64,000 nucleotides of DNA from Cymbidium sinense (taxonomy: Eukaryota; Streptophyta; Magnoliopsida; Asparagales; Orchidaceae). Below are positions 1 through 27,453 of this stretch, in pieces. The notes below the pieces were generated by a model, which was not told where the DNA came from, ran no database searches, and worked only from the letters and a program-made list of their open reading frames with translations. The translations under genes and the position numbers were made by a program. The stretch lies in NCBI GenBank assembly GCA_021442155.1, contig CM038215.1, positions 7,216,976 through 7,280,975 of the forward strand. The letters run 5' to 3'. Position 1 is the stretch's first letter. Each line of letters starts with the position of its first letter.

Positions 1-3000
1 TTTTTATTTAGTTTAGTTTATTTATTTTAGGTTTATTTAGGTTTATTTTTTAGTTTAATTTTCATTTTATTTTATTTTTTAGGTTTCAGTTTTATTTTTT
101 ACTTTTAGGTTTAACTTTAGGTTTTTATTATATTTTTTTAGGTTTAGGTTACAAGCTTTTATTTTAGGTTTATTTTTAGATTTTATTTTTTAGTTTAAGT
201 TTAGGTTTATTTTTAGCCTTTTTTATTTTATTTAATTTAGGTTTAGGTTTAGGTTTAGTTTGATAGGTTTATATTTAGGTTTTATTTATTTTAATTTAGT
301 TTAATTTAGTTTAGGTTTAGGTTTTTTTTAGTTTAGGGTTTCAGTTATATTTTTTAGTTAATTTTATGTTTTATTTTAGGTTTATTATTTAGGTTTATAT
401 TTTTATTTTATTTTATTTTAGGTTTATTTTATTTTTATTTTATACTTAGGTTTTATTTTATTTAGGTTCTTTATTTCTTAGTTTAGTTTAGGTTTTTATT
501 TATTTTAATATAATTTAGTTTTTTATTTTTATTTTATTTTATTTTTAGGTTTAGGTTTAGGTTATAGTTTTATTTTATTTTATTTTGGTTTAGGTTTATT
601 TATTTATTTTATTTTTAGGTTTTATTTAGTTTAGGTTTAGGTTTTTAGCTTTTAGGGTTTAGGATTTATGGTTTTAGGGTTTAGGGTTTTAGGGTGGTTT
701 AGGGTTAGGGTTTAGGGTTTAGATTTAGGGATAAGGGTTTAGTGTTTAGGCTTTAGGTTTTAGGGTTTTGAGGGTTTAAGTTTAGGGTTTAGGGTTTAGG
801 GTTTAGGGCCTAGCATTTAAGGTTTAGGGTTTATGGTAAGCATAAGGTTTAAAATTTTAATTTTTTTAAACTAACTGAACTAGTATGTTTAGGTTTATTT
901 AGTTTATTAAGTTTATTTTTTATTTATTTTAGTTTATTTTATATTTTATATTTATTTATGTTCATATTTTATTTTTATTTTGTTTAGTTTATTTAATTTA
1001 GTTTAGGTTTTTTATTGCAATATTTTTTTTTTTATTTTTAGGTTTAAGTTTTAGTTTTTTTTTATGTTTAGGTTTAGGTTTTTATTTTATTATTTTAGGG
1101 TTAAGTTTTAGGTGTTTATTTCAGGTTTATTTTTAGCTTTTACTTTTCAGTTTAGGTTTAGGTTTAGTTTATTTTTATTTTATTTAGGTTTAAATTTAGG
1201 TTTAGTTTATTTTATGTTTAGGTTTAGGTTTTATTTATTTTGTTTTAGTTTATTTTAGCTTAGGTTTTGGTTTATTTTAGTTTATTTATTTTATTTTTAT
1301 CTTAGGTTTACAGTTTTTTAGTTTAGGGTTTAGGTTATAATTTTTATTTAGTTTTAAGTTTAATTTTTAGTTTTATTTTCTAGGTTTAGGTGTTTATTTA
1401 GTTTTTATTTTATTTTATTTGAGTTTTATTTTAGGTTTATTTTACTTTTATTTTACATTTAGTTTTTATTTTATTTAGGTTTTTTATTCTTATTTTTGTT
1501 TTATTTTTTAGTTTAGTTTAGGTTTTTATTTATTTTATTTTAGTGTTTTTAAGTTTATTTTATTTTATTTTAGGTTTAGGTTTAGATTTTAGTTTAGGTT
1601 TTTATTTTATTTAGTTTTCTATTTATTTATTTATTTTATTTTTTAGTTTTATTTAATTTAGGTTTAAGTTTTTAGGGTTTAGGGTTTTAGGGTATTAGGG
1701 TTTAGGGTTTAGGGTTAGGGTTTAGAGATTATGGTTTAGGGGTTACGATTTGAGTTTAGAGTTTAGGGTTTAGGGCTAGTTTAGGATTTAAGGTTTAGTG
1801 TTTTTTAGGGTTTAGGGTTTAGGGTTTAGGGTTTAGGTTTAGGGTTTAGGGTTTAGGGTTTTTTTAAATTAAGTAAACCAGTAGGTTTAAGTTTATTTAG
1901 TTTATTTGGTTTATTTATTATTTATTTTAGATATTTTAGTTTATTTTTTATTTAGTTTAGTTTATTTATTTTAGATTTATTTATTTTATTTTATTTTTTA
2001 GATTTAGGTTTAGGTTTATTTTTATTTTATTTTATTTTTTATGTTTAAGTTTTATTTTTTATTTTAAGGTTTAAGTTCAAGTTTTTATTTTATTTTTTTA
2101 GGTTTAGGTTTTAGGTTTTTATTATAGGTTTATTTTTAGGTTTTACTTTTTAGTTCAGGTTTAGGTTTATTTTTTATTTATTTTATTTTATTTAGTTTAG
2201 GGTTTAGGTTTAGGTTTAGTTTATTTTATGCTTAGGTTTAGGTTTTATTTACTTTAGTTTAGTTTATTTTAGTTTAGGTTTAGGTTTATTTTTTTTAGTT
2301 TAGGGCTTAGGATTCTTTTTTAATTCATATTTAGGTTTAATTTTTTAGGATTACGTTTAGTTGTTATTTTATTTTTTTAGGTTTAGGTCTTGGGTTTTTA
2401 TTTTAAGTTTATTTTTAGGTTTTATTTTTTAATTTAGGTTTAAGTTTACTTTTAGTTTATTTTATTTTATTTAGTTTAGGTTTAGGTTTAGGTTATATTT
2501 ATTTTACTTTAGTTTATTTTAATTTTGATTTAGGTTTATTTTACAGAGCATTAGAGTTTATTTAGGGTTTAGGATTTGCTCAGTTTAGGGTGGGGGGTGG
2601 AGTTTAGGGTTTAGGGTTTAGGCTTTAGGATTTAGAGTTTTTGGGGTTTAGGATTAGCTTAGAGTTTAGGGTTTAGGGTTTTACGATTTAGGGTTTAAGG
2701 TCAATGTTAGGGTTTAGGGTTTATGGTTTTGGGTTTACGGTTTAGCGTTTAGGATTTAGGGTTTTGAGTTTAGGGTCTTTTAAGGTTTAAGGTTTAGGGT
2801 TTAGGGTTAGGTTTAGGGTTTAGGATTTAGTGTTTAGGGTTTTGGATCTAGGGTTTTTGTTTAAGGTTTAGGGTTTAGGTTTTTTTTTTTTAAAATTAAG
2901 TAAACTTGTAGGTTTTGGTTTATTTAGTTTATTTTTTATTTATTTTAGTATTTTTTATTTTTTATTTGTATTTAGGTTTATTTTTTTTAGTTTAATTTAT

Positions 3001-5464
3001 TTATTTAATGTTTATTTATTTTAGTTTATTTTTTAGGTTTAGGTTTAGGTTTTTATTTATTTTTTAGTTTAGTTTTACTTTAATTTTATTATTTAGGTTT
3101 AGGTTTTTTTTTATTTTTAGGTTTAGGTTTAGGTTTTCCTTTTATTTTTTAAGTTTAGGTTTTAGGCTTTTATTTTAAGTATATTTTTAGATTATATTTT
3201 TTTAGTTTAGGTTTAGGTTTATTTTTAGTTTAGTTTATTTTATTTTATTTTATTTAGGTTTTTTATTCTTTGGATTAATTTTATTTTTAGTTTAGTTTAG
3301 GATTTTATTTATTTTATTTTATTTTATTTTTAGATTTAGGTTAAGGTTTTAGTTTAGGTTTTGAGGTTTAGGTTTAGATTTTATTTCATTATTTTAGGTT
3401 TTATTTCATTTTATTTTATTTTATTTAGGTTTAGGTTTTTTATTTATTTTATTTCTAGTTTTATTTAATTTTTATTTAAGTTTTTAGGTTTTTAGGTTTT
3501 TAGGATTTAGGGTTTAGGCTTTAAGGTTTAAAGTTTATGGTTTTAGTGTTTTAGGGTTTAGGGTTTATAGTTTAGTGTTTAGGCTTTAGGCTTTAGGGTT
3601 TTTAGTGTTTAGGGTTTAGAGTTTAGGGTTAGCTTAGGGTTTATGGTCAAATTAAGGTTTATGATTTAGGGTTTAGTGCTCAGGTTCTGTTTAGTGAGTT
3701 TAGAGTTTAAGATTTAGGGTTTAGGATTAGATTTAGAGAGGTCAGTTTAGGGTTTAGTAGAGTAGGGTTTTGAGGGTATTTTGGTTAGGTCATAGTTAGG
3801 TGGGGTGGTAGTGGGTTTAGTGTTTAGAGTGGGTTTAGGGTAGGAGGTGGGTTTTATGGTTTGGGGTTTAGTTTTTAATAGTTTACGTCAAGGGTTTAGG
3901 GTTTAGGAGTTATTTTTTTTTTAAATTAAGAAAACTGATATGTTTAGGTTTATTTAGTTTATTTAATATTTTTATTTAGGTTTATATTGTATTTTTATTT
4001 AGTTTAATTTATTTATTTTATGTTATTTATTTTAGTTTATTTTTTAGTTTTAGGTTTAGGTTTATATTTATTTTTTAGATTAGTTTTATTTTTAAATTAT
4101 TTTTTAGTTTTAGGTTTTTTTTAGTTTAGGTTTTAGTTAAATTTTAGTTTAGTTTTATTTTATTTAGTTTAGGATTTAAGTTTAGTTTATTTCAGGTTTA
4201 GGTTTAGGTTTTATTTATTTTAGTTTATTTTAATTTAGGTTTAGGTTTATTTTATTTTGTTTATTTTAGGTTAATTTTTCTTTTTTTTAAAGTTTAGGGT
4301 TTAGGTTATATTTTTTATTTATTTTTTGGTTTTAATTTTAGGTTTAAGTTTTCATTTAGCATTTATTTTAATATAATTTAGGTTGAGTTTATTTTTATTT
4401 TACATATAGGTTTTATTTTATTTAGGTAATTTATTTTTAGGTTTATTTTATTTTTAGTTTAGTTTAGGTTTTTTTTCTTTTTATTTTAGTTTAGTTTTTT
4501 ATTTTTTTTATTTTATATTATTTTAGTTTAGTTTAGCTTTTTATTTTATTTTATTTGGTTTATTTTTATTTATTTTAGTTAATATTATTTATTAATATTA
4601 TTTAGGTTTATTATTATTTTTATTTAGTTTAGTTTATTTATTTTGGTTTAATTATTTTTGTTTAGGTTTTTATTTTAGTTTATTTTTTACGTTTAGGTTT
4701 AAGTTTAGGTTTATTTTTTAGTATTTTTTATTTTAATTTAATTTTTTAGGTTTTAATTTAATTTTTTATTTTTAATTTTACATTTATGTTTTTATTTTTA
4801 TTTTCTAAGTTTAGGTTTTAGGTTTTTTATTTTAGGTTTATTTTTAGGTTTTATTAATTAGTTTAAGTTTAGGATTATTTTTAGTTTATTTTATTTTATT
4901 TAGTTTAGGTTTAGTTTATTATAAGTTTAGGTTTAGGTTTTATTTATTTTAGTTTAGTTTATTATAGTTTATGTTTAGGTTTATTTTATTTTTATTTTAT
5001 GTTTATGTTTTTTTTTTTAGTTTAGGGTTTAAGTTTTATTTTTAATTTATTTTTAGGTTTTATTTTTAGGTTTATTTTTAAGGTTTAGGTTTTTATTGAG
5101 TTTTAATTTTATTTTTTTAGGTTTATTTTAGTTTTATTTTAGGTTTAGTATTTATTTTAATCAGGTTTTTTAATTTTTTTAGTTTAGTTTAGGTTTTCAT
5201 TTATTTTATTTTATTTTAGTTTTTATTTTTTCTTTTATTTTCTTTTTAAGTTTAGGTTCAGGTTTAGGTTTAGGTTTTAATTTATATATTTTATTTTATT
5301 TTATTTTGGTTTAGGGTTTATTTAGTTTAGGTTTATGTTTTTAACTTTTTAGGGTTTATGGTTTAGGGTTTAAGGTTTGAGGTTTAGGGTTTAGGGTTTA
5401 GTGTTTAGTTTTTAGGTTTAGGGTTTAGGTTTTGGTTTAGGGTTTAGGATTTTTTGTTTTTTTT
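1..5464 (+). repeat. Telomere-like megasatellite array, segment 1
   Basis: Low-complexity DNA built from TTTAGGG heptamers, TTTAGG hexamers and TTTTA/TTTAG pentamers, with the G-rich strand on plus and almost no C. Heptamer-rich blocks lie near 650-860, 1,670-1,860, 2,560-2,880, 3,480-3,920 and 5,340-5,450. Each block up to 3,920 ends in a T-run followed by a non-telomeric anchor (AAATTAAGTAAAC-like) at about 868, 1,866, 2,892 and 3,923, so the spacing is 998, 1,026 and 1,031 bases. After each anchor comes TTTAGTTTATTT-rich DNA. No reading frame of any length is present. The motif is the common plant telomere repeat; the high degeneracy and the anchors show an old amplified array rather than a chromosome terminus. 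Confidence 0.85.
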
Positions 5465-5957
5465 AACAGAAAATATATTCAAATTCAATATTTCTTCTTT
5501 TTGATTTAATCAACCAAGTAACACAGCAAATTTTCTAATACACAAGCGATGACATAGATAAAAAATGGATAAAAAATGTTTAAGCATAGAGCAAATCAAA
5601 AGCCTTAGATAACTAGAACCATCTTTACTATAATGACACAATTCCATAAGCAGTAGCTCGGATTGATCGTTCTTCAATTTCTCTAATTTCCATCAGAACC
5701 ACGTCGGCCTCTGGAGTAGCGTGATCCACCAACATATCACTGATCTCTCCTTTTGCCACCACCAAGGATGTAATCTTTGTGGCTCCTCTTGCTTCCATAA
5801 CCACCATTGCTCTGACACTACCTCCACATCCACCAGCACTTTTAGATCCCCCACCACAACTATGATAATCGCCGCCTCCACCTTCACCTCCACCGCCAGA
5901 TCTAGACTGAGCCTAGTTGATGGTGATGTTCCTGCCATCAAGGTTTTGCCCATTTTT
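5465..5957 (-). pseudogene. GR-RBP 3'-end pseudogene, copy 1
   Basis: Minus-strand remnant of the last part of a plant glycine-rich RNA-binding protein gene (GRP7-like; these bind RNA through an RRM followed by a Gly-rich tail). Reading leftward from 5,954 gives NGQNLDGRNITIN, the end of the RRM, then a stop (TAG) where the family has Q or E, then AQSRSGGGGEGGG and a Gly/Tyr-rich tail. The tail loses frame and ends in DGN-stop-RN-stop; the terminal Trp codon of GNWRN is TAG, and the normal stop is at 5,674-5,676. From 5,465 to 5,673 is 3' UTR-like sequence shared with the other copies, bordered by a T-run (an A-tail on the minus strand). There is no start, promoter or RRM core, so it is not functional. 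The family assignment is firm; the retroposed origin is inference. Confidence 0.85.
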
Positions 5958-8191
5958 AGGGTTTAAATTTATTAGGCTTCAGAGTTTAGGTTTATTTTTT
6001 AATTTATTTAGTTACTATAGTGTTAGGTTTAGCATTAGGGTTTAGGGTTTAGGGTTTAGGGTTGTAGGTTTTAGGGTTTAGAGTTTAGGGTTTTCTTCTT
6101 TATTTTTTTTTTTTTTTTCATAGAGTTCAGGGTTTATGGTTTTAGAGTTTAGGGTTTAGGGTTTAGGGTTTAGGGTTTTAGGGTTTAGGGTTTAGGTTTT
6201 AGGGTTGTAGGTTTAAGGTAAGTTTTTTTAATTTTAATTTTATTTAAATTAAGTAAACCGGTTGGTTTAGGTTTATTTAGTTTATTTTTTATATATTTTA
6301 GTTTATTTTATTTTTATTTTTATTTAGGTTTAATTATATTTTTAATTAGTCTAGTTTATTTATTTTAGTTTAGGTTTTTCATTTTAATTTATTTTTTAGG
6401 TTTAGGTTTAGCTTTAGGTTAATTTTTTAGATTAGTTTTATTTTTATTTTATTTTTTTAGGTTTAGATTTTTTTTTATTTCTAGGTTTAGGTTTAGTTTT
6501 TTTATTTTATTTTAGGTTTATGTTTTGGTTTTTATTTTAGGTTTATTTTTAATTTTATTTTTAGTTTAGGTTTAGGTTTATTTTTAATTTATTTTACTTT
6601 ATTTAGTTTAGGTTTAGGTTTAGGTTTAGTTTATTTTAAGTTTATGTTTAGATTCTATTTATTTAGTTTAGTCTATATTAGTTTAGGTTTAAGTTTAATT
6701 TATTTTATTTTAGGTTTAGGTTTTCTTTAATTCAGGGTTTAAGCTTTATTTTTATTTATTTTTAGGTTAATTTTTTAGGTTTAGGCTTTTATTTAGTTTT
6801 TATTTTATTTTATTTTAGGTTTATTTTATTTTTATTTTATTTTTAGTTTTTATTTTATTTAGGTTTTTTTTTAGTTTAGTTTAGGTTTTAATTTATTTTA
6901 TTTTAGTTTAGTTTTTATTTTTTATTTTATTTTCTTTTTAAGTTTAGGTTTAGGTTTAGGTACAAGTTTTAGTTTATGTTTTTATTTTATTTTATTTTTT
7001 TATTTTATTATGGTTTAGATTTTATTTATTTATTTTATTTTTAAGTTTTATTTAGTTTAGGTTTAAGTTTTTAGCTTTTTAGGGTTTAGGGTTTAGGTTT
7101 AGTTTAGGGTTTAAGGTTTGGGGTTTGGGGTTTAGGGTTTAGGGTTTAGGGTTTAGGTTTAGGTTTAGGTTTTGGCTCAAGTTTTAGTTTATGTTTTTAT
7201 TTTATTTTATTTTATTTATTTTTGTTAAGGTTTTTTTATTTATTTATTTTTAGGTTTTATTTAGTTTAGGTTTAGGGTTTTAGCTTTTTAGGGTTTAGTG
7301 TTTAGGGTTTGATTAGGTTTTATTTTGTTTATTTTACTTTTATTTTAGTTTTAGGTTTTATTTAGGTTAGGGTTTAGGTTATGGGTTTAGGGTTTAGGTT
7401 TAGGTTTAGGCTCAAGTTTTAGGTCATATTTTTTAATTTATTTTTAGGTTTTATTTTTGGGTTTATTTTTTAGATTTAGGTTTTTATTTAGTTTTTATTT
7501 TATTTTATCTTAGGTTTATTTTATTTTTATTTTACATTTAGTTTTTATTTTCTTTAGTTTTTTTATTCTTAGCTTTATTTTATTTTTTAGTATAGTTTAA
7601 TTTTTTATTTATTTTATTTTAGTTTACTTTTATTAGTTTATTTGATTTTATTTTTAGGTTTAGGTTTAGGTTTTAGTTTAGGCTTTTATTTTATTTAGGT
7701 TTTGGTTTTTTATATATTTTATTTTTTGCTTTTATTTAGTTTAGGTTTAGGTTTATAGGTTTTTAGGGTCAAGGGTTTAGGGTTTAGGGTTTTAGGTTTT
7801 AGGGTTTAGTGTTTTAAGGTTCAGGGTTTAGAGTTTAGGGTTTAGTGGTTTAGGGTTTAGGGTTTAATGTTTAGGCTTTAGGGTTTAGGGTTTTTATGGT
7901 TTAGGGTAGGTTTGGGTTAATTTAGTTTATTTAGTCTAATTTTATTTATTTTAGTTTATTTTATTTTTTATTTTATTTAGGGTTTAGGGTTTTGGTTTTA
8001 GGGTTTTGGGTTTAGTTGTGGCTTTAGGTTTTAGGGTTTATTTTTTTATTCAAGGCTTCAGGTTTGTGGTTTTGTGGTTTGTGGTTTTGTGGTTTAGGTT
8101 TTTGTGGTTTGTGGTTTAGAGTTTGTAGGTTTATGTATTTGGTATAAGGTTCAAGTTTTAGTTTAGAGTTTAGATTTTTACTTTTATTTTT
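5958..8191 (+). repeat. Telomere-like megasatellite array, segment 2
   Basis: Same composition and polarity as segment 1. An anchor (AAATTAAGTAAACCGG) is at about 6,246. Heptamer blocks are near 6,020-6,230, 7,080-7,180 and 7,740-7,910. The stretch 8,040-8,160 has an unusual GTGGTTTGTGGTTTTGTGG flavour. It separates GR-RBP copies 1 and 2, whose stop positions lie 2,716 bases apart, roughly two array units plus the insert. I see no gene. Confidence 0.8.
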
Positions 8192-8660
8192 AAAAGAGAA
8201 CAAATTTAGATTTAAAATTTCTTCTTTTCAGGTTTATTAACCAAGTAACACATTAAGTTTTCTAAGAAATAAGCGATGACATAGATAAAAAATGAGCACA
8301 CATAGAGCAAATCAAGAACCTTAGATAACAAGAACTGTCTCTACTGTAAAGACATAATTCTATAAGCAGTAGATCAGAATGATCATTCCTTAGTTTCTCC
8401 AGCTCCCATTAGAACCACCCCAGCCTCTCGAGTAGTGGGATCCACCATCATATCCCCAATCTCCCTCTCACCACCACCGCCAGAACCTCCTCCGCCCTCC
8501 CACCTCCATAACCACCACTGCTCCGACCACCACCTCCATATCCACCAACACCTCCAAATTCCCCACCACCACTATGATAACCGTCGCCTCCACCTTCGCA
8601 TCTGCCACTAGATCGAGATTGAGCCTGGTTGATGGTGACGCTCAGCCATCAAGGTGACCT
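8192..8660 (-). pseudogene. GR-RBP 3'-end pseudogene, copy 2
   Basis: Second minus-strand remnant of the same GR-RBP gene end. The coding part runs leftward from about 8,655 to the stop at 8,390-8,392. Just after LDG a one-base deletion shifts the frame; downstream it reads TINQAQSRSSG, so the Gln codon (CAG) that is a stop in copies 1, 3 and 4 is intact here. A Gly/Tyr-rich tail follows (GGVGGYGGGGRSSGGYGGG), then a frameshift, and the end reads SNGSWRN-stop in the right frame. The 3' UTR-like part is 8,192-8,389. This copy therefore branches from the others before their shared nonsense mutation, or was separately repaired. Not functional. Confidence 0.85.
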
Positions 8661-11600
8661 GGGTGGTTTAGTTTAGGTTTAGTTTGTGGTTTAAGTTTAT
8701 TTATTAATTTATTTAGTTACTTTAGGTTAGGTTTAGGGTTTGGGGTTTAGGGTAGGTTTAGTTTAGGGTTAGGGTTTAAGGTTTAGGGTTTTAGGATTTA
8801 TGCTTTTAGGGTTTAGGCTTAGGGTTTAGGGTTTAGGGTTTAGGGTTTATGGATTTTTTTTTTTAAATTAAGTGAACTAATAGGCTTAGGTTAATTTAGT
8901 TTATTTTTTTATTTGATTTAGTTTATTTATTATTTATTTTTATTTAGGTTTATTTTTTTATTTTTAGCATATATTTTAATTTTTAATTATTTTAGTTATA
9001 TTTAGTTTATTTTAGGTTTAGGTTTATGTGTTTAGTTTATTTTTATTGTATTTTAGGTTTAGGTTTATTTTAATTTTAGGTTTAGGTTTAGGTTTGTATT
9101 TATTTAGGTTTAGGTTTTAAGTATATGGTTATCTAGCTTTATTTTAATTAGGTTTAGGTTTATTTTAGTTTAATTTATTTTATTTAATTTAGGTTTAGGT
9201 TTGGTGAGTTTATTTATTTTAATTTAGTTTATTTTAGTTTAGGTTTATTTTTATTTTATTCATTTTATTTTATTTTAGTTGAAGTTTTCTTATAATAGGG
9301 TTTTAGGTTTTTTTTGTTTAAGTTATTTTTTTATTTAGTTTTATTTTATTTTATTTTAAATTTATTTTATTTTATTTTTATGTATTTTTTTATTTTATTT
9401 AGGTTTTAATCTTAGGTTTAATTTATTTTAGTTTAGTTTAGTTTTTATTTATTTTATTTTAGTTTAATTTGTTAGTTTATTTTATTTTGTTTTAGGTTTA
9501 GGTTTGAGTATAGGTTTATTTTATTTTATTATTATTTTAGTTTAAGTTTTATATATTTATTTGGAGGTTTATTTATATATTTAGTTTAAGTTTTAGGTTT
9601 AGGTTTAGGGTTTGTTTAGTGTTTAGGTTTTATTTTTAGGGTTTAGGGTTTAATGTTTAGGTTTAGGGTTTAGGTTTTTTTTTTTTTAAGCTAGGTTTGG
9701 ATTTTATTTTATGTTATTTTTATTTTATTTAGTTTAAGTTTTTTATATATTTTATTTTATTTTATTTAGTTTAGTTTATGTTTTGTGGTTTTTAGGGTTT
9801 AGGGTTTAGCTTTAAAGTCCCAGGGTTTGGTTTAGGGTTTAGCATTTAGCATTTTAACCCTGTGAGTTTAGGGTTTTGTGGTTTAGGGTAAGGTGGTTTT
9901 TAAAATTAAGTAAACCAAGAGTTTAGTTTATTTAGTTTATTTTATTTATTCATTTTATTTTATTTATGGTTTAGGGTTTAGGGTTTATGGTTTATGCTTT
10001 GTGGTAGGTTTAGGATTTATTTGGTTTATTATTTTTTTAAAAAATTAAGCAAACCATAGTTTAGGTTTATTTAGTTTATTTAGTTTAATTTTATTTATTT
10101 TAGTTTATTTAATTTTATATTTTTATTTAGATTTATTTTTAATTTTTATTTAGTTTTGTTTATTTACGTTAGTTTATTTTTTAGGTTTATGTTTATTTTT
10201 TTGTTAGTTTTTATTTTTAATTTATTTTTTAGGTTTAAGTTTTATTTTATTTTTTTTTAGGTCTTTGATTTATTTTTTTGTAGTTTCATGATTTTATTTT
10301 GGGTAGTTTTAGGTTTTATTTTTTAGTTTAGGTAGTTTATTTTTTAGTTTACTATTTTTTTAGTTTAGGTTTAGTTAGTTTGATTTAGTTTATGTTAGTT
10401 TTATTTAGTATATTTATTTTAGTTTCATTTTAGGATTATTTTATTTTATTTTAGTTTAGGTTTTAGTTTATGGTTTAGTTTTATTTTATTTATTTTCATT
10501 TTATGTTTTAGGTTTATTTTTAGGTTTGTTTTATTTAGTTTAGTTTTATTTTATTTTATCTAAGTTTATTTTATTTTATTTTATTTTTTTATTGGTTTTA
10601 TTAGGTCTTTTAATTTAATTAGTTTAGGATTATTTATTTTTTAAGTTTATTTAAAGTTTTATTTTATATTTAGTGAGGATAGTTTAGTAGGTATTTTATT
10701 TTATTTATCTTATATTTAAGTTTTATTTATTTATCTGTATGTTCATTTAGTTTAGTTGGTAGGGAGTGGTATAATACCAGTGCCTAGGTTTAGTTTAGGG
10801 TGGTTTGGGGTCATTAGGGTTTAGGCTCAGTTTGTGTTGTGGTTAGGTTTATTTGGTGGCCCATGTTGGGTCCTGTGGTTGGGCTCAGTAGGAGAGTGTG
10901 GCTCAGTGTTTTATTTTTAGGAAAATCAATATAGTATTTAGTTTATTTAGTTCAATTATTTTATTTTATTTTATTTAGTGATTTATTTTATTTTATTAGG
11001 TTTTATTTTAGTGTATTTTGGTTTAGTTTTTATTTATTTTATTTTTTTTAGTTTAGTTTTATTTTTTTATTTTATTTTAGTAGTTTATTTTATTTTAGGT
11101 TTAGTTTAGGTTTTAATTATTTTTATGTTTTATTTTAGGATTTTATTTTAGTTTTTATTTTAGTTTATTTTATTTATTTATTTATTTAGTTTTATTTTTT
11201 ATTTAGTTTTTTTTATTTTATGGTTTTGGGTTTTTGGTTTTATTTATTTATTTTTAGTTTAGGTTTATTTTAGTTTTTTTATTTTATTTATTTAGTTTTA
11301 TTTAATTTATTTTTACATTTATTTTGATTATTTTATATTTTATTTTTTTTAATTTAGTTTATTTTATTTTATTTTATTTATTATTTATTATTTATTTGGT
11401 TTTTTTATGTTTATTTTATTTTAGTTTTTATTAATATTTAGGTTTGGGTTTATGTTTTTGTGGTTTTCAGTTTGTGGTTTATTTTTTTAGTGTTTAGGTT
11501 TGTGGTTTGGTGTGTTTTGGGGCAGTACTTGTGGTTTAGTTTAGTTGGTTGTGGTTTTGGGTTTGCTTGGGGTTGTGGTTTATTTTAATTTTAATTTTAA

Positions 11601-13283
11601 ATTAAATAAATCAGTTTAGTATTTTTATATTTATTTATTTTTATTTTTTTATTTGATTTAGGTTTATTTTTTTTTTTTAGTTTAGTTTATTTTATTTAGT
11701 TTATTTATTGCAGGTTTTATTTTATTTTATTTTATTTATTTTAGGTTTTTTAGTTTAGTTATTTTTATTTTATTTTTTTTAGGTTTATGTTTGGGTTTTA
11801 TTTTATTTTTAGGTTTAGGTTTTAGATTTTATTTTTATTTTAGATTTCTTTATTAGTTTAGTTTTTTTACTTTTTTATTTTATTTTCTTTAGTTTGTTAT
11901 TTTAGGTTTAGGTTTTATTTATTTTAGTTTAGTTTATTTTAAATTTAGGTTTATTTATTTTATTTTATTTATTTAGGTTTACTTTTTTTTTAAGATTTCA
12001 TTTTAATTTTATTTATTTAATTATTTTGGTTTATTTTATGTTTAGTTTTATTTAGTTTTTATTTTATTTTTTATTTTAGGTTTAGCTTTTATTTTATTTT
12101 TTCTTATTTTAGTTTAGTTTAGGTTTTTTATTTGTTTTATTTTAGTTTTTTATTTTTTTATTTTATTTTCTTTAGGTTTAAGTTTAGGTTTTAGTATGTT
12201 TTATTTTATTTTATTTTATTTAATTTTATTGGTTTTATTTATTTTATTTTTTTGTTTATTTAATTTAGGTTTAGGTTTTAGGTTTTGTGGTTTTAGGGTT
12301 TAGGGTTTTGGGTAGTTTATGTTTTATTTTAGAGCTCAGATTATGTGAGGGTTTAGGTTTTTTTGTGATTTATAGGGTTTTAAGTTTAGGATTTATGGTT
12401 TATGATTTTCTAAACCAAGTAAATAGTTTAGGTTTATTTAGTTTATTTTTATTTATTTTATTTTAATTTTAATTTTTATTTAGGTTTATTTCTTTATTTG
12501 GTTTAGTGTATTTATTTTAATTTAGGTTTTTGCTTTAGTTTATTTTTAAGGTTTAAGTTTATTTTTTAGTTGAGTTTTATTCATATTTTAATTTTTAGGT
12601 ATAGGTTTTATTTTTTATTTTTAGGTTTAAGTTTTAATTTTATTTTTTTAGGTTTATGTTTTAGGTTTTATTTTAGGTTTATTTTTAGGTTTTATTTTTA
12701 AGTTTTGGTTTACTTTATTTTCAATTTATTTTATTTTATTTAGTTTAGGTTTAGGTTTAGGTTTTATTTATTTTAGTATAGTCTTAAGTTTATTTTACTT
12801 TATTTATTTTATTTTTATTTTAGGTTTAGGTTTTTATTTAGTTTTAATTTTATTTTAGGTATATTTTATTTTATTTTTATTTAGTTTTTATTTTATTTAG
12901 GTTTTTTTCTCTTAGGTTTATTTTATTTTTTAGTTTAGTTTTGGTTTTGTTTATTAACTATTTATTTTTATTATTTATCTTTTTAGGTTTAGGTTTAGGT
13001 TTTAGTTGGTTTTATTTTATTTTATTTTTTTTATTTATTTTAGATTTAGGTTTATTTCTATTTTAATTTATTTATTTAGTTTAGTTTTAGGTTTCTTTTT
13101 TTTATTAGTGGTATTTGGTTTGGTTTAGGGTAGGTTTAGGTTTAGGGTTTTAGGGTTTAAGGTTTAGGTTTGGTTTAGGGTTTTTTGTTTAGGTTTTTAA
13201 GGTTTAGGTTTGTGGTTTTTGGTTTAGGGTTGGTTTAGGGTTAGTTTACTAGGTTTGTTTATTTTAGGTTTAGGGTTTTGATG
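8661..13283 (+). repeat. Telomere-like array, segment 3 (most degenerate part)
   Basis: Plus-strand T/G-rich degenerate array. Anchors occur near 8,865, 9,902, 10,042, 11,599 and 12,412, so spacing is irregular here (1,037, 140, 1,557 and 813 bases). Heptamers are sparse between 10,100 and 13,000, where TTTTATTTTA and TTTAG pentamers dominate. Short islands with more G and some C lie at about 10,750-10,910 and 11,480-11,580. The array returns to TTTAGGG-like text at 13,120-13,280, where it meets the LINE-A poly(A) end. No coding sequence is supported. Confidence 0.75.
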
Positions 13284-13290
13284 TTTTTTT

Positions 13291-15733
13291 GGGAAACCCA
13301 TATAAAACCCACAAAAAGAGGGTTACAAGGTTATCGGGATAAACTCCAAAACCATCGCTCAAAGAGCTAATCAGAGAGTAAAATAAAGAGAAAAGGAAAG
13401 AAAAGATACAAAATGATTAACAAAGATAAGCGATGGATGGATCTGGGCCAAAGCTCTTCAGATATGAAGATACATGGCACTAGGAGAAAACACAGAGAAA
13501 AAAGAAATGCATCACAAAAAGTAGAAAGATAAAATTAGAATAGTTAAACAATCTGAGACAAAGTGAAAAATTAAAGCAGCATAAACTAAGAAAAATTATA
13601 GAGAAGAGTGTGAGAGAAGGCTCAGGCTCAGTCACACTAGATTGAGGCAGATGGAAATATGAACATCCAAACTTCAGCGGAAGGGTTACATCACAAGAGC
13701 TACTAGCAAACCAAAAAGGAGTGAAATCAACACAGCCATCATAGCCTACAAACCCGTGAGAAGATATCAACCATTTGTTGAAAGTCTTATGAGCCTTAGT
13801 ACCTGGAAACCTAAACAAAGCCATATACACTAAAGAAAAGGAAACAATAAAGAGCAGCATGGGAGAGGGGATCCCATGCAGGATAAATATCATCAATATA
13901 GTCACCATAGCATGAGAATCCCTACACATATGAAAATGAACCATCTCTACCAGATCCACCTTTTTAATACCAAAGCCAAGAGTATAATTAGGCCAGCATG
14001 AAAACCCGAAAATAGCGAAAAGGCGGAGGATAGAAACAATATACAACCAATTGAAAAGACTACTAAAATCCTGTTAAGCAAATCAATTAGCATGTAAATA
14101 ACACCATCCCAAACGTATGGGACATATATGAAACTTTCAGGCCAGGAGTATAGCTCTGGAATATTGCCCAGAAAAGATACCCATTCAGAATAAGAAATGC
14201 AGATGTTAACAACCCCCTTGTTAATAATCATTGCAGAAGTTAACAAATAGCAAATGTAAAGTGAGACAACATAACCCAAACCCAAAATAAAATGCAGTCT
14301 AACCAAGATGGGAATGCGTGAGATTAAGTGGACCGAAATAATGGCGCACCCCATACAACAACACCAAAAATCGAGAGACAACCCGGTAGCATCTTGGGCA
14401 TAAAACGATAATCGGTAACAATCATGATAGCAAATAGACTAGGCGGCCATAAAACCACTCATTAGGTGCATAAGTTAATAACTAAGTAGGTAATAGCATA
14501 ATCAGTGATACAGTCTAACGAAGATGGAAAAAATAGTAGCGATTAAATAGACCACAAACATCGTGATAAACGGCGATCACAAGACAAAAATAATCAGAAA
14601 AACAACCCCAGAAGCAGCCTGCTGGACATAAGACCCGAAAATCCAACAACCAACAAATAAAATAGCAAAAAAAATATGGTACCCACATAAGATAATCCAG
14701 TAAAAAATAATGGTACATCATAGACACGAAAGGGGTTCAAAGGAAAGCCATCATTGAAATCCTTCAAGATAAAGAAAAGCATGCCAGCAGCTAAGCCAAC
14801 ATCATCAGTAAAAGTAGACTGGAAAGAACACAAAAAGTAATTCCAATCCTGCAGAGAGACAATAATAATAACAAGGGTATTGCAGTTTCTCTCCATACTA
14901 GTTGGGGAGGTGAGGTTAGCAAGAACAATCAGAAAACAACCCCAGAAGTAGCCTGCTAGACATAAGACCCAAAAATCCAACAACCAACAATTAAAGCAGC
15001 AAAACAATTATTGCACCCACCATAAGAAAATCCAATAAAAAATAGTGGTACAACATATACACGAAAGGGGTTCAAAGGAGAGCCATCATTGAAATCCTTC
15101 AAGACAAAGAAAAGCAGACCAGCAGCTAAGCCAACATCATCAATAAAAATAGGCTGGAAAGAAATCAAGAAGTAATTCCAATCCTGCAAGAAACAGTAAT
15201 AATAACAAGGGTATTGCAGTTTCTCTCCTTACAGGTTGAGGAGGTGAGGTTAGAGAGCAAAAGAGGGGCCACAAAAGACAGATAATTAGGGCCTGTCATG
15301 AAGCTATACGAAAATATAGCAATTAAATAATGAGATAGCAAAGTCATGAGCCCCAGCACAGATTTCCAGAGAAAGGAAAAGAGACAAAACACAGCCTTAA
15401 TCATAAAATGGAAAATAGATACAGTAAGACCCATAATGAAAATATTGATGGGAAGAAGTCTGTCCTTGTTGATCAAAAGTAAAGCGGTAAAACATCTCCC
15501 TCCAGACGATAAGGAAAATATCTCCATCCAGGTTAGAAAAATAGGAAACACCTTACCATTAATGGAAATAGCGAAGCGGTAAGACCCCAAATAAGGTTAG
15601 GAATTAATTAATCCGGGCGAGATCACAAAATAACTACAAAGGTGTATCGGGAAGATGCATCGAACTAGAAACAACAACTTTTAGAAGTTGGTCATGTAGT
15701 TAAGGTAACACAGGCCAAAAATAATAGGATCAA
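13291..15733 (-). other. LINE-A 3' untranslated / hypervariable region
   Basis: Sequence between the end of the RNase H domain and the poly(A) tail. It starts with GGGAAACCC next to the T-run, as in LINE-B, and shares with LINE-B the blocks at 13,320-13,370 (GGATAAACTCCA) and modules such as 'GTTGGCCATAAAACC'-like and 'GACCCAAAAATCCAAC'-like text. Several open frames of 70-190 codons occur on minus, but they are rich in Phe/Leu/Cys, overlap each other in different frames and include a repeated segment. They match nothing I recognise and I treat them as chance. Confidence 0.65.
14590..15235 (-). repeat. ~335-bp direct tandem duplication in the LINE-A 3' region
   Basis: Two neighbouring copies in the same orientation, offset 335 bases: TTCAAAGGAAAGCCATCATT at 14,736 matches TTCAAAGGAGAGCCATCATT at 15,071, and CAACCCCAGAAGCAGCCTGC near 14,604 matches near 14,938. 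Similarity is high throughout. Two of the chance minus-strand open frames are copies of each other because of this. Confidence 0.85.
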
Positions 15734-18700
15734 TTAATTTACGTGAGGATTGTCCAAATTAACCAAACCACTCAAATGTTTAAGTAGTGTAAGTTGATCA
15801 AAGAATTTTATGCCATCTAATCTAGCACCCAAATTAGCAAGGTAATCAACACATGCATTACCTTCATGCCATACATGAGTGATTTTAAAATAGAGTTGAG
15901 AAAGGAGAGCTCTAATCTGCTTTAGAAGGTAGAATAATTTTGTATTGCCCACTTTGGTGGAAGTCAAAAGATCAATCAGTAACAGGGCATCCACCTCAAT
16001 CCAAATATTGAGCCAACCTTTTTGAAGGCAAATCTCAATAGCTTTGTAAATTATCATTAGCTCAGCAAAAAGAACAGATCAAGTATTAAGGGGGTAAGCA
16101 AAAGCACATAAGACTTTACCATTAAGGTTTCTGAAAATACCGTCCACAGCTAGAAGCATTTTTAGAAATAGAGCCATCAGTGTTAATTTTAATTATATTA
16201 GCATGAGGTTTTATCTAATAAACAATCTTGTCATCTTTACAGTTGGGTTGATCCGGAAAGTTAAAACCCAGTTTATTGGCCATAAATTTGAAGCCATTGA
16301 ATTGATTGTAGTTAATTAAATTGGCATTAAATAAGGCATGGATTTTATTTTTAATTCTAGCAATTATCCTCATATGGTTCATAGGAATCCCATGATGTTT
16401 TGCATCATTTCTGTCCATCCATATGAACAAATAAGAGTGATAGCAGTTATGAGTTTAATGTGGCCTTTAATAGTGTTTTCAAAATAAACTCCAAGAAGTT
16501 GGTATAGAGTTAAGGAGACATTGAATTTGACAATATTAAAAAGTTCATCATACTAAATCTAAAGTTTGGAAGCAATGGTTCATTAACAAATACATGATTT
16601 ACATTCTTAATGTGAAAGTAGTAGTAGCATTTTGAAGGTAAGTAAAAACCTTTACCCCACATCAAGGAGTCAACAGGGATGAAGTTTTCTAAAATATGCC
16701 AAGTTAGAATAGAATAAGAAATAGGAATAGTGTTATTCCAAAGTTTAAAAAACACATTGGAGAAATCATGAGCTTCTTTGATATATCAAACATTTTAAGG
16801 TTGAAATCACCATTTTGGGAAAGCTTAAAAGGATCGATCATGCTATGAATGATAGGAATAATAGTAAGCTTATCTGAAAGAGAGAAATCAATATAGTCGG
16901 TAAGCTTAGTATTGTTCCACTTATTATTGAGAAAGAGTTCACTTTAATAGCAGCAATGGAGTGGGTAGAAAGTAATTCATCAATGGACCAACCTCCAGTC
17001 GAGTTATCTTGCCAAAAGAAAGAGGTTCTATAGTTAATCCCGCATGAGATTAATGATTCTACTTCCCATTTGATGGAACAAATTCATTTCCATACAAGAG
17101 ATTCTCCCACTTTATAAGGGCAAATCAAAGGGTGCTTACAGCGGTGAAATTAGCAAAGACTATTGTTGCTCCTAAAATTCCACCAAAGTTTATAGGAAAA
17201 AAGCGTGATAGCTTCCGATTGGCTTACGACCAGCCACCTTCACAAGAGTGCCAGCTCTTATACAAAGAGGTCCAATGTATTCTTTTAGTAGAATTGTTAG
17301 AACCCCAGAAGAATTTGTTAAGGAGGAAGTGATCAAATGGTAGAATTTGTCAGCACAATGGTTTGAATGAGATATAAAGGCATGGAGTTAAGGGTACTCT
17401 TAATCAAAGTGAGCCTACCACCAAATGAAAGTAAATAAAATTCTCAAATAGAAATTTTATTAGAAATTTTTTGGATTAACTCATCAAAGAGATGTGATCT
17501 TTTCTGACCTCTAAAAAGTGGAGCACCAAGATATTTAATAGGAAGTTGTTGTTGCTAAAAATTAGTAATTCTAAAGATTTGGTTAATCCTATTACTAGAG
17601 ATTTTAGAGGAAGGAATGAAACAACTTTTACCTTCATTAAGAAAGAGACCACTTTCGTTACCAAATTTATTTAAAAGATTCTTAATAGTTTTAATGTGAT
17701 GAATAGAGGCATTGCAAAAGATTATGAAGTCATCAGTAAAGCTAGGATGAGAGACAGGAAGACCACCTTGAGTTCTAAAAACATGCTAGGATTATTGTTA
17801 AAAAGATCATTAAGACTCCTCGAAAGATAATCAACAACAATAATAAAAGAGAAGGAGATAAGGGATCTCCTTGTCTCAATCCATGCATAGAAGGGAAAAA
17901 ACCTATTGATTCACCATTCATGATAACAGAGAACCAAACATTGGTAATACAATTTTTAATGAGATAGATAAAAGATTCAAAAAAATCAAACAAATGTAGA
18001 ATTTGGAAGAGAAAATTCTAAGAGAGGTTGTCAAAAGCTTTAGAGATGTCCAATTTGAAAAGGATGTTACCACCTCTGGTAGAAGAATCAAGGTCATGAA
18101 TCAACTCTTGGGCTAGAAGAATGTTGTCAGATATAGCTCTACCTTTAACGAAACTAGTTTGATTGGGGGAAATAATTTTACGCAGCAGCGGACTAATTCT
18201 ATTGGAAATTAATTTAACAATGAGTTTATGAAAGAAGGTGCAAAGGCTGATAGGTATGAAATCGCCCCAAGATTCAGGATTATTAATTTTGAGAATGAGA
18301 ACAATGGAAGTGCTAAAAAAATATCTTTGTAAAGATTTCCATTGAAGAAATCAATGACAGCATCAACAAGGTCAGACTTAATAATAGGCCACAATGCTAA
18401 AAAAATTGAGTGTGTAGCCATCAGGGCCAACAATAGAATCAGTGTTCATGCTATTAAGAATACTACCAATCTCAGCTTCCGTAAGACGCATATTAAACAA
18501 GTGGTTGTCATCATTAGTAACTATTGAGGGAATCAGGTGAGAGTTGGAGAGAGATTCTACAGAAGGGTTATTATTTAATAAGATTTTAAAATGATGTATG
18601 ACAGAATCTTTAATATCGTTATTGTCTATGATCCAGCTGCCGTTATCATTTTAAATTTTTTTAATAGAGTTTAAAGCTTTCTTTTTTTTAAAAGAGCATG

Positions 18701-19713
18701 GAAGTACTTGGTATTTCTGTCACCATCAGCAATATGTTTGCTAGCATCCTTTTGTCGCCAGTAGGTTTCCTCCATATTCTGATAGTTAACCAAGTTATCT
18801 TTAGCTTCATTCAACTCCTCAAGTTTAGTAGAATCAGTCAAAATGGCATCTTCAAGAGAACAAATTAATTATTCCATATTTTTGATATTGGCAAAAAGAT
18901 TTTTAAAATGATGCTTGTTTCACCAATTTAGCTTAAGCTTGAAGAGTGAAGCCATCAATGAAGAGGAGCCATCCAACATTAATGAAATCAATGTGTTGGA
19001 TCCACATATTTTGGAATCTGAAAGAGGTTGGGGAGGGTAATCTATTAGATGGATTTTGGATCAAAATAAAAAGCTGAGCATGGTCAGACAAAGTTTTGCT
19101 CAAATGTTCAACAGAAGTAAGGGGCCATTGATTGATCCAAAGAGAATTAAAAAGAGTCCTATCCATTTGCAGTCTATAGTTATGCCATGTATAATCCGAA
19201 CACAAATAGCCAATATCAATGAGATTGCAATCAAGAATCATATTAAAAAAGTCTTCCATGGAATGAATGTTAGGAGAGCAACCTCCCCTTCTTTTCGAGG
19301 AAGAGAGAATATTGTTAAATCATCCCCAACCAACCGGGGTTGGAGGAGGAGGCAAAGGTTCTTAAGTTGTCCTAAAGAATGTTCCTACCAGCTCTATTAC
19401 AAGAAGCATAAATAAAGGAAACTAAAATAGAAAAATCACCCAATGAGATGTAGACCTTAACCAATTGTTGAAGATCATCAAGGATAGATATGTTGACTAA
19501 ATTATTCCAAAAACACCAAATTTAATTGCTAATATTATAAAAGAAGTTTTGAAAGCCAAGCGTTCTAGCAACATGGTTGATCTTAGAAGAGTGTATGAAT
19601 GGTTCAATAACAATAAGTAAGGCTATGTTATGAATACAACAAAGACTTCTAATATGATTGCGGACAATGAGAGTCCAAATACCCCGAACATTCCAAATTA
19701 GTAAGTTGATCAT
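15734..19713 (-). pseudogene. LINE-A ORF2 (endonuclease-RT-RNase H), broken
   Basis: ORF2 made the enzyme that nicks the target and copies element RNA into it (target-primed reverse transcription). A plausible start is the Met at 19,713, giving MINLLIWNVRGI, the usual start of a LINE AP-type endonuclease. More endonuclease lies at 19,259-18,933 (DRTLFNSLWINQWP, then SDHAQLFI near the usual SDHxP). RT covers about 18,700-17,480: GPDGYT near 18,420, a LDISKAFDNLS-like stretch near 18,050, GLRQGDPLSPS at about 17,880, and the catalytic box FTDDFIIFCNA at about 17,745-17,715. The zf-RVT-like linker is about 17,100-16,500 (FFWQDN). RNase H is about 16,215-15,734 (IWIEVDALLL, then HVWHEGNACVDYLA, which carries the late His and Asp of plant RVT_3 domains). 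Stops and shifts separate all these blocks, so it is not functional. Confidence 0.88.
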
Positions 19714-19787
19714 AATAAAATAATAAAGAAAGGAAAAGAGATAACTAAACAAATAATAAAGTAAGAAGAAAAGGAAATTAGAAATAG

Positions 19788-21270
19788 TTATTTATGGGAA
19801 GTTAGAGAAGATCTAGTAGTTCTAGTAGAGCGATTAGTGAACATTCTAGCTTTAAGTGATTTTTTTTTAAAAATAGTTTTAAAAGGTCTATCATTGTCCA
19901 AAGAATCACCATCCGAGAGAGACTGATTTGTGATATTCAGAATAGGATCTATATCAGTCAAAGCATTTCTAATGGTAATTTCCCCTTCTTCAATGTCAGA
20001 ATTAAGCTGAGAAAGTGGGTTAGCATGCATATCACTCTGAAGAGTAGGAGAAGGAGAGATTGTGAAGACATTAATAGCACAGATTTCATGCTTAATTTTA
20101 GAATTAGTTTTCAGATTTTGTTCCATCATCAAAGGATCAGCAGTTTTTAGATTTTGTTCCTTCATCAAAGGATTAACTCCAGAATTTGTATTCAGATTTT
20201 GATCCAACCTAAAATTTCCATTCAAATCACCACTAAGGTTCATATGAGTCTCCTCGGGTTCACTAGCCAAAAGGGGTAGGTTAGACTGAGTCAAGGTATT
20301 GTCTTGAGGAGCCAAATTATTACAATTAGAAGAAATGATAATTAAGCTATCATTAGCCTCCTCACAAACCTCATAAGCATTATTTTTAACATGCTCAGAT
20401 TGCTCTCCAATAGACAAAGCAGTGGATAGAAAAGGAGTAGGGGTAGGGGTAGGATTCCCAATTTTGAGTGACTTTAGGCACATAAGAAAATTTACTAATT
20501 TTTTCATTTGATAGAGTAGGATTAGGATCCAACAATTTGTTCTTTTTTAGTTGAGGATGCAACACAAAACATTCAGAATGATCATGGCCATGAATCTTAC
20601 AATGTGTGCAAAGAATAGGAAAATTCTCAAATTCAACTTTTTGATTATAACCAACTTCTTAGAGCCAATCCAAACTTATTTAGGATGCTTTTTAGTGATA
20701 TCAATATCAACCAAAATATGAGCAACAAAATGTCGTGATCTCACAACGGTGGCCTGATCAATTTGAAGAGGCTGACCAAAAGCAAAAGAGAACTTGATGT
20801 GTAACATAATGTATTCTCATATTAGGAAAAGCTAGCCATATAGGAACAATTAAGGATTCCTCTTTTATATTAAAAAGAGGAGACCATTTCAGAAGTCACA
20901 TTTGACAATTAAAAACAAAGTAAGAGCGACGTACAAAAACTCTTGAATAATCTAAGTCATTAGAGAACTGAATTAAAATATGCCTTGGATCAATCAATCC
21001 GATAGTGAAAACACCTGAAAGTTTAAGACAATAAAAAAATGATCGGATGTTATCGAGAGTTGGCTGACATAAGGAAAATTTACCAACCAAAGAGAATTCA
21101 AAAGGCTTCTCCAACTTTTCCACATCTAGATCCGAGCACATAATAGCAGGCATCCCACGAAAAGAGGTCGAGATCAAATTCACTGAAGCATTAGGTGAAA
21201 GGTTCTTATTAGATAATGCATATTTAAAGGACTTAACTGCAGGCAGAGTAGCGGATGATTTTAGATCCAT
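19788..21270 (-). pseudogene. LINE-A ORF1 (DUF4283 plus CCHC zinc knuckle), broken
   Basis: The gag-like RNA-binding protein of plant LINEs. It opens with MDLKSSATLPAVKSFKYAL at 21,270. Residues about 55-124 form a DUF4283 domain (FSLVGKFSLCQPTLDNIRSFF, then IGLIDPRHILIQF), broken by a stop at 20,896. After a decayed stretch comes a perfect CX2CX4HX4C knuckle, CTHCKIHGHDHSEC, at about 20,570-20,612. The tail (20,507-19,788) is Ser/Asn/Pro-rich and ends in SRSTRTTRSS-like basic residues. A PTPTPTP run comes from a GGGGTA microsatellite near 20,440. ORF1 ends about 75 bases before the ORF2 Met, a normal LINE spacing. Confidence 0.87.
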
Positions 21271-21510
21271 AATTCCATGTAAATCTTATGCCCTAGTCGA
21301 TGCCTCCAAGATGGATAAGCTCGACTGCGTGGAAAGTGGCTCCTCTGCCATTGAAAGAGCAAAGTGAAAATTACATTAGAGGCCAATAAGAGACGAACAA
21401 TCGAAAGAATCGATCGTGAATGATAAAAAATCGCCAAGCCATAAAGAAAATGAAAGCGACAAAAGGGAAAAATGAAATTGCCAGAGAGCGCTGTGGCCGA
21501 GAGGGTTTTT

Positions 21511-27393: not shown

Positions 27394-27453
27394 AAACAAC
27401 GAACAAAATTCAGATTCACAATTTCTTCTTTTCAATTTCATCAACCAAGTAAC
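27394..27453 (-). pseudogene. GR-RBP 3'-UTR stump, copy 5 (truncated)
   Basis: After a T-run the 60 bases here (AAACAACGAACAAAATTCAG onward, ending CATCAACCAAGTAACA) match the outer 3' end of the four longer GR-RBP copies, for example 61,405-61,460. The match stops abruptly at about 27,453, where unrelated sequence (AACGAGGGAAGTGAGG) begins. The coding part is absent and is not found on the far side of the foreign block. It marks the left breakpoint of the non-telomeric insertion or rearrangement. Confidence 0.75.

What the first reader, a model, noticed from the sequence alone, without database searches (positions are those of the whole stretch)
1..13283. Telomere motif organised into ~1-kb units with a conserved non-telomeric anchor
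The array is not random decay of TTTAGGG. A T-run followed by an AAATTAAGTAAACC-like anchor and GGTAGG/TTTAGGTTTATTTAG recurs at least 25 times in the window, often 1.0-1.25 kb apart (868, 1,866, 2,892, 3,923 here; similar spacing at 21.7-26.4 kb and 42.4-44.7 kb). Each unit keeps the same internal order of pentamer-rich, hexamer-rich and heptamer-rich blocks. This is a telomere-derived megasatellite with its own unit, which I do not recognise as a described family.
Basis: partly seen in the sequence, partly recalled or inferred. Interest (0 to 1): 0.75.

Follow-up and report, generated by a model that had tools for sequence, protein, structure and literature searches.

The report
Telomere-like satellite with two-part units
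A stretch of plant DNA carries an old telomere-like array built from repeated, roughly 1-kb two-part units that all point the same way; it looks like a well-organised satellite of a kind already known in plants rather than random decay of a telomere.

Summary
A profile of the anchor finds 26 copies (E<=1e-4), all on the + strand; 22 score better than any hit in five simulated arrays, 4 do not. The array (about 31 of 64 kb) alternates "H", near-canonical TTTAGGG (median 190 bp), and "D", a T-rich stretch (median 683 bp) that starts with the anchor and has a second conserved end. D copies over 15 kb apart align in register (48-57% of probes at 60-300 bp; Markov control 8-11%). H blocks show almost none. 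D is not simply decayed H. Autocorrelation peaks at 1.0, 1.2 and 2.3 kb. Best reading: an interstitial telomere-like satellite grown by tandem duplication (a 3.77-kb duplication and a dimer repeat are visible), carrying two LINEs and one retro-pseudogene that multiplied with it. TTTTA is 1,761:8 on + versus -, which would force LINE-type insertions into one orientation. A new member of a known kind. Species, chromosomal position and copy number could not be tested.

The parts
1..13283 (+). First stretch of the array: H/D alternation with anchors at 868, 1866, 2893, 3923, 6246, 7905 (weak), 8865, 9903 (weak), 10042, 12412 (weak) and two GRP pseudogene copies
634..837 (+). Example H block (near-canonical TTTAGGG) before the anchor at 868
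   Evidence: junction printed
1866..1930 (+). Anchor, example copy without mismatch to the 23-base core
   Evidence: nhmmer E 3e-12
1886..2543 (+). Example D element (T-rich, TTTAT/TTTAG/TTTAGG)
   Evidence: register tests
1608..1696 (+). Example of the second conserved end of D (D-to-H junction)
   Evidence: nhmmer E 4.3e-12; 21 such ends at E<1e-8, 18 of them seeds; none at E<1e-8 in five simulated arrays
21499..27393 (+). Second stretch; anchors 21729, 22977, 24070, 25310, 26437 form an ABABA dimer higher-order repeat (2.3 kb)
   Evidence: lag 2300; 21513-25023 vs 23869-27393, 80%; A units 84-86%, B units 80%
38447..39119 (+). H + anchor 38762 + cut D inside a 3.77-kb tandem duplication
42161..52129 (+). 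Third stretch; anchors 42452, 43588, 45382, 48657, 50561, 51294; D blocks without a called anchor at 44694, 47056, 49591
60715..64000 (+). Fourth stretch; anchors 61022, 62229, 62935, 63869 (weak)
5475..5985 (-). GRP-like retro-pseudogene copy 1 (3' part of a glycine-rich RNA-binding protein message with A-rich tail)
8202..8675 (-). GRP-like retro-pseudogene copy 2
46294..46740 (-). GRP-like retro-pseudogene copy 3
61406..61914 (-). GRP-like retro-pseudogene copy 4
27385..27457 (-). Tail and scrap of the GRP pseudogene 3' end (47-63 bp matches)
13286..21541 (-). LINE 1, broken, with H on both sides; only a sub-threshold DUF4283 match (E 0.0094), otherwise known by its similarity to LINE 2
52134..60714 (-). 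LINE 2, broken, with reverse transcriptase (PF00078) and DUF4283 pieces; H on its right, a D end with a short H-like tail on its left
35347..42785 (+). 3.77-kb tandem duplication, 93.4% identical, that carries an H-anchor junction

Best explanation
An old, probably interstitial telomere-like satellite of a plant. Its unit has two parts: H, a short tract of near-canonical TTTAGGG, and D, a T-rich sequence of mostly 0.6-1.1 kb with a conserved start (T-run + AAATTAAGTAAACC... anchor) and a conserved end. It most likely grew by ordinary tandem duplication and unequal exchange (shown: a 3.77-kb tandem duplication, a 2.3-kb dimer repeat, and multiplication of one pseudogene copy; inferred: that this accounts for all units). 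H tracts turn over faster than D by repeat slippage, so they lose register (inferred). Because nearly every TTTTA lies on the + strand, the nick that an L1-type LINE needs can form almost only on that strand, so LINE-driven insertions should land in one orientation; those seen here do (strand bias shown; enzyme step inferred from recalled general knowledge). No gene or encoded function is seen in H or D; it most likely behaves as inert heterochromatic satellite DNA (inferred).
For: 26 anchors on one strand, 22 of them beyond five simulated arrays. Far-pair register of D 48-57% at 60-300 bp against 8-11% Markov control, 260 ordered pairs per offset. Second D end: 21 matches at E<1e-8 (18 seeds), none in the simulations. 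25 of 26 anchors within 48 bp of an H right end. Autocorrelation peaks. Tandem and higher-order duplications. GRP copies: 3 of 4 share a stop codon and 3 of 4 the same 5' junction (by eye), so one retrocopy later multiplied. TTTTA 1761 on + against 8 on -. No minus-strand self-match at E<=1e-30.
Against: Most units are only 70-80% alike (range 62-86%) and neighbours are often not each other's nearest relatives, so most duplications are inferred. A longer collinear duplication (1.6-8.2 kb against 42.2-49.0 kb, 71%) was not backed by the H blocks (percentiles 3 to 98 over 14 pairings). H blocks of the dimer's A units are not consistently more alike (percentiles 48, 93, 56), though those of the B units are (100). 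GRP flanks exceed background in only 2 of 6 (right) and 1 of 6 (left) pairs. A-rich tails next to CCCTAAA are also what retro-insertions would leave.
Confidence: 0.72

Rival explanations
1. D is a non-autonomous poly-A retroelement that inserts into TTTAGGG tracts in one orientation, so the array is a pile of insertions into telomeric repeat (a plant counterpart of insect TRAS/SART or Drosophila HeT-A).
For: Read on the minus strand, D ends in a GGTTTACTTAATTT-like sequence + A-run followed by CCCTAAA. D has two conserved ends while H varies in length and shows hardly any register. Two short copies keep only the anchor end (D of 63 bp at 7905 and 117 bp at 9903), like 5' truncation. GRP and both LINEs sit beside H in the same orientation.
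Against: The two short copies are among the four anchors that simulations can match on score. Blocks that lack the anchor end but keep the other end also occur (44694, 47056, 49591). GRP copies, which look like one insertion multiplied later, vary in their tails just as much. Dimer repeat and tandem duplication are present. No D outside telomere-like DNA was noticed in this window. Target-site duplications cannot be told from the repeat itself.
Confidence: 0.1
2. Random decay of a long TTTAGGG tract, with the anchor a chance recurrence.
For: H blocks carry point changes typical of decay (25 of 50 single substitutions G to A).
Against: 22 anchors beyond simulation, conserved second D ends and far-pair register; D is not the product expected of the decay seen in H.
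Confidence: 0.02
3. Sequencing or assembly artefact, such as nanopore miscalling of telomeric repeats.
For: Blocks of altered telomeric motif are a disputed nanopore artefact (passages of PMC10521516).
Against: The disputed blocks are TTTAAAA/TTAAAA (and CCTGGG-type), not TTTAT/TTTAG; miscalls would not be expected to give D copies with two conserved ends and 62-86% mutual identity interleaved with pseudogene copies and LINEs.
Confidence: 0.03
4. The array was laid down by repeated chromosome-end healing: each H is telomere added by telomerase to an end that finished in D, followed by fusions.
For: H is near-canonical and adjoins D ends; everything lies in one orientation; almost no C on the + strand (1.7% in D, 2.8% in H).
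Against: Needs dozens of end events in one place; tandem duplication is directly visible; H blocks are followed by the same anchor start again and again, which independent healing would not give.
Confidence: 0.05

Closest known systems
Telomere-similar arrays in potato centromeres (Tek & Jiang 2004; He et al. 2013; neither paper held, known here only through citations and passages in PMC2442093, PMC3276127, PMC8621592)
   Same: Long non-terminal arrays of telomere-like plant DNA; telomeric-repeat BACs hybridised to centromeric and pericentromeric regions (PMC2442093 passages)
   Different: Their unit structure could not be compared; the position of the present array is unknown; the best named protein matches of the LINEs here are Dendrobium, not Solanum
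PaB6 satellite of Prospero autumnale (PMC4273535, passages)
   Same: A plant satellite with telomeric motifs as an integral part of a higher-order unit
   Different: 249-bp unit with TTAGGG motifs; no ~1-kb unit with a T-rich part in the passages seen
Pericentromeric telomeric-repeat blocks of Cycas (PMC9827991, abstract and passages)
   Same: Large, heterogeneous interstitial blocks of telomeric variants
   Different: Main variants are heptamers (TTCAGGG, TTTAAGG, TTCAAGG); no long unit or anchor appears in the passages seen
Telomere-invading non-LTR elements (TRAS/SART, HeT-A, MoTeR; listing and abstract starts, otherwise recalled)
   Same: Single orientation, A-rich end against telomeric repeat
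   Different: D has no ORF of 120 aa, is itself telomere-like, and lies in an array with visible tandem duplications

Membership tests
Satellite DNA (tandem, head-to-tail) | Repeated unit, same orientation, homologous outside a short motif | tested here: met
Satellite DNA (tandem, head-to-tail) | Local homogenisation or higher-order repeats | tested here: met
   dimer at 21.5-27.4 kb and 3.77-kb duplication; elsewhere units mostly only 70-80% alike
Satellite DNA (tandem, head-to-tail) | High copy number genome-wide | not testable with these tools
   The genome search 'own' did not complete
Plant interstitial telomeric repeat (ITR) | TTTAGGG-type repeats | tested here: met
   38 H blocks, 8334 bp
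Plant interstitial telomeric repeat (ITR) | Non-terminal position | tested here: inconclusive
   non-telomeric DNA lies between array stretches, but no chromosome map is available
Telomere-specific non-LTR retrotransposon | Own reverse transcriptase | tested here: not met
   no ORF >=120 aa in D; the LINEs present are separate sequences. A non-autonomous element would not need one
Telomere-specific non-LTR retrotransposon | A-rich 3' end joined to telomeric repeat, one orientation | tested here: met
Telomere-specific non-LTR retrotransposon | Target-site duplications | tested here: inconclusive
   not tested formally for D because the flanks are themselves repeats; looked at by eye for the LINEs
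Potato-type telomere-similar centromeric array | Location in centromere, CENH3 binding | not testable with these tools
   single window

The most novel reading that the evidence does not exclude
D is a small poly-A retroelement that specialises in plant telomeric repeats, so this array is the fossil of a telomere-colonising element in a flowering plant, a kind of system I know only from animals, fungi and algae (recalled).
Probability: 0.1. Interest if true: 0.8.

Novelty: new member of a known kind. Interest (0 to 1): 0.38.

Why it matters
It shows that a telomere-like array can be a structured satellite with a conserved, partly non-telomeric start and a conserved end, rather than eroded telomere. 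It also gives a simple, testable reason why retro-insertions in such arrays would share one orientation: the T-rich strand holds nearly all possible L1-type nick sites. The anchor and the D end are ready probes for FISH and for searching plant assemblies.

Tried and rejected
Multiple-alignment identity did not separate in-register from out-of-register sets clearly (0.82 against 0.76-0.81), because the aligner finds repeats anywhere; the register test replaced it. The reversed-window control is too easy, since reversing destroys the telomere motif: simulated arrays still gave 1-6 anchor hits and 4-12 D-end hits at E<=1e-4. The limits therefore used are: better than 1.1e-7 for the anchor (22 of 26) and E<1e-8 for D ends (21, none in simulations). 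The 18 seeds of the D-end model were picked by eye from 26 D-to-H boundaries; the eight left out were 2544, 9785, 10755, 11490, 12268, 13108, 43186 and 62772. That model gave 116 matches at E<=0.05 in the window because it shares the telomere motif. Eight H- or D-labelled segments at 27.9-32.6 kb were dropped as non-array before all counts.

A longer segmental duplication (1.6-8.2 kb against 42.2-49.0 kb) had the highest score of the long array-to-array alignments but was not supported by H-block similarity. That LINE 1 and LINE 2 are copies by duplication was not supported by their flanks (36.5 and 50 against a background of 38+-16); independent insertion is possible but unproven. Register of H upstream of the anchor looked raised against a uniform null (27% at 30 bp against 5.9%). 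Against an H-only null the excess is small: 112 against 89 of 406, and 21 against 12 of 56 for pairs with the T-rich spacer, at 30 bp; 55 against 55 and 9 against 7 at 100 bp; 36 against 42 and 6 against 4 at 150 bp. Decay by cytosine deamination fits H but not D. No Rfam family at gathering score and no tRNA.

Protein searches gave plant LINE relatives. The best named plant hits are Dendrobium: 50% for LINE 2; for the 29.8-kb ORF 72% over 98% of the query and 82% over 66%. Unnamed or non-plant-labelled records scored as high or higher for the latter (79%; 88% in a Chromobacterium amazonense record). This hints at an orchid or relative but does not identify the species. The endonuclease domain of the LINEs was not detected by Pfam in the pieces tested, so the nick argument rests on recalled general knowledge of L1-type LINEs. 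The identity of the GRP piece is by eye from its translation, recalled, with no family search. An exact anchor core was sought in genome contigs (1 hit, a Persephonella MAG, taken as chance and not examined) and viral contigs (0).

Full report
What was checked. The window is plant-like DNA in which about 31 kb of 64 kb is telomere-like, in one orientation (H 8,334 bp, D 22,642 bp; eight H- or D-labelled segments at 27.9-32.6 kb were left out as non-array). The anchor was searched with a profile built from 18 copies: 26 hits at E<=1e-4, all +, eight of them not used for the model; the next best hit is 0.023 and the reversed window gives 0.33 at best. Reversal destroys the telomere motif, so I also searched five simulated arrays (same H and D lengths, order-6 Markov): they gave 1-6 hits at E<=1e-4, best 1.1e-7. 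22 of the 26 real hits are better than that. The other four (7905, 9903, 12412, 63869) are not, on score alone, but lie at H-to-D junctions. A 23-base core with up to three mismatches gives 16 hits against 0.03 expected.

The unit. A three-state segmentation shows alternation of H, near-canonical TTTAGGG blocks (38, median 190 bp), and D, T-rich blocks (38, median 683 bp, 31 of at least 200 bp). 25 of 26 anchors lie within 48 bp of the right end of an H block; the exception, 10042, follows a short H-like piece that the segmentation did not call. Of the 31 long D blocks 23 start with an anchor. The 8 without are the one cut by the window start, one after a GRP copy (61885) and six others (7426, 10909, 11579, 44694, 47056, 49591), some with what looks by eye like a degraded anchor. 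The far end of D is conserved too...TTTTATTTAGTTTAGGTTTAGGTTTTTAGCTTTTTA then GGGTTTAGGG. A profile from 18 such ends, picked by eye from 26 boundaries, finds 21 at E<1e-8; the simulated arrays have none at that level, best 4.5e-8.

Are units homologous outside the anchor? For 20 units, 120-bp probes from one unit best match another unit in register (within 25 bp) in 87% of 380 ordered pairs at the anchor and in 57, 52, 54, 57, 45, 25, 18, 17, 12% at 60, 120, 180, 240, 300, 360, 420, 480, 540 bp, then 7-16% at 600-780 (266-361 pairs), against a background of 0.3-4%. Using only pairs more than 15 kb apart (260), the values at 60-300 bp are 48-57% against 8-11% for an order-6 Markov control; at 360-480 bp 17-26% against 10-11%. 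Measured from the other end of D, register is 41% against 7% expected if uniform. H blocks show at most a small excess of register over an H-only null next to the anchor (112 against 89 of 406 at 30 bp; 21 against 12 of 56 among junctions with a T-rich spacer) and no clear excess at 100-150 bp. Autocorrelation: 1.0 kb in 1-5.4 kb; 1.2 and 2.3 kb in 21.5-27.4 kb (10 null sequences). The last is a dimer: units 21729, 24070, 26437 are 84-86% alike and 22977, 25310 80%.

H and D differ in kind. In H, of 50 single substitutions in heptamers between intact neighbours 25 are G to A, as cytosine deamination on the other strand would give. In D, the base after TTTA is T in 50%, G in 38%, A in 9% of 3,168 cases, and motif spacing peaks at 5-6 instead of 7. 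D is therefore not simply decayed H; since its copies align, it was probably T-rich already in their common ancestor.

How it grew. Directly visible: a 3.77-kb tandem duplication (35347-39119 and 39119-42785, 93.4%) with an H-anchor junction inside, and the dimer repeat. A 3' fragment of what looks like a glycine-rich RNA-binding protein message, with an A-rich tail, lies at 5475-5985, 8202-8675, 46294-46740 and 61406-61914 (74-79% alike; a scrap at 27.39 kb), always on the minus strand. Three of four copies share the same premature stop and three of four the same truncated 5' junction (by eye), so one retrocopy was most likely multiplied with the array; its wider flanks are shared above background in only some pairs (2 of 6 right, 1 of 6 left). 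That makes tandem amplification the simplest account of the units as well. Two broken LINEs of about 8.3 and 8.6 kb (77-80% alike in the best-aligned parts) lie at 13.3-21.5 and 52.1-60.7 kb, both minus and both beside H. LINE 2 has RVT_1 and DUF4283 pieces; LINE 1 only a sub-threshold DUF4283 match. Their flanks are no more alike than random array pieces.

One orientation explained. TTTTA, the kind of site an L1-type endonuclease nicks (recalled knowledge), occurs 1,761 times on the + strand of the array and 8 times on the - strand. An insertion primed at such nicks must place its sense strand on minus; the GRP retrocopy and both LINEs do. This removes the need for a telomere-specific enzyme, though it does not exclude one. 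The endonuclease domain itself was not detected by Pfam in the pieces tested.

The retroelement alternative. On the minus strand D ends in a GGTTTACTTAATTT-like sequence plus an A-run followed by CCCTAAA, which looks like a poly-A insertion into telomeric repeat, and two short copies (7905, 9903) retain only that end. Against it: those two are among the anchors that simulation can match, blocks that lack that end but keep the other also occur (44694, 47056, 49591), the GRP copies vary in their tails as much, and tandem duplication is visible. I give it 10%.

Known relatives. Telomere-motif satellites and long interstitial telomeric arrays are described in plants: potato centromeres (PMC2442093 and PMC3276127, passages; the original papers are not held), PaB6 of Prospero (PMC4273535, passages), Cycas blocks (PMC9827991, abstract and passages), reviewed in PMC8621592 (passages); kilobase-sized units in Solanum verrucosum centromeres (PMC13232507, passages). 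In the lists returned by eight literature searches I saw no title or abstract start that describes this unit; that is no proof of absence, as the lists were capped, Repbase and plant assemblies were out of reach, and most subscription papers are not held.

Limits. The own-genome search did not complete, so copy number, position and species remain open.

Noticed in passing
5475-5985, 8202-8675, 46294-46740, 61406-61914: Four copies of one 5'-truncated, plant glycine-rich RNA-binding protein-like retro-pseudogene (identified by eye), all on the minus strand, 3 of 4 with the same premature stop, embedded in the array.
   Followed up: partly
13286-21541 and 52134-60714: Two broken LINEs, same orientation, each beginning about 0.85 kb after an anchor and lying beside H; flanks not shared above background, so possibly independent insertions with a site preference.
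   Followed up: partly
27385-42785: Largely non-telomeric block with a further LINE-like ORF at 29805-30341 (72-82% to Dendrobium nobile proteins, 88% to a protein in a Chromobacterium amazonense record that is probably plant contamination) and a 3.77-kb tandem duplication.
   Followed up: partly
43282-43580: An H-like block unusually rich in GGCC/CCTAGG variants, just before the anchor at 43588.
   Followed up: no
array parts of the window: Extreme strand bias: C is 1.7% in D and 2.8% in H on the + strand; TTTTA 1761 to 8 between strands.
   Followed up: yes
6246, 45382, 48657, 50561, 51294, 61022, 62935, 63869: A second class of anchor junction with a T-rich spacer of roughly 25-50 bp between H and the anchor instead of a plain T-run.
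   Followed up: partly
61022-61231 and 7082-7782: Very short D with both ends (anchor 61022, D end 61142-61231) and a cluster of three D ends (7009, 7219, 7691) around short H blocks: local rearrangement inside units.
   Followed up: no
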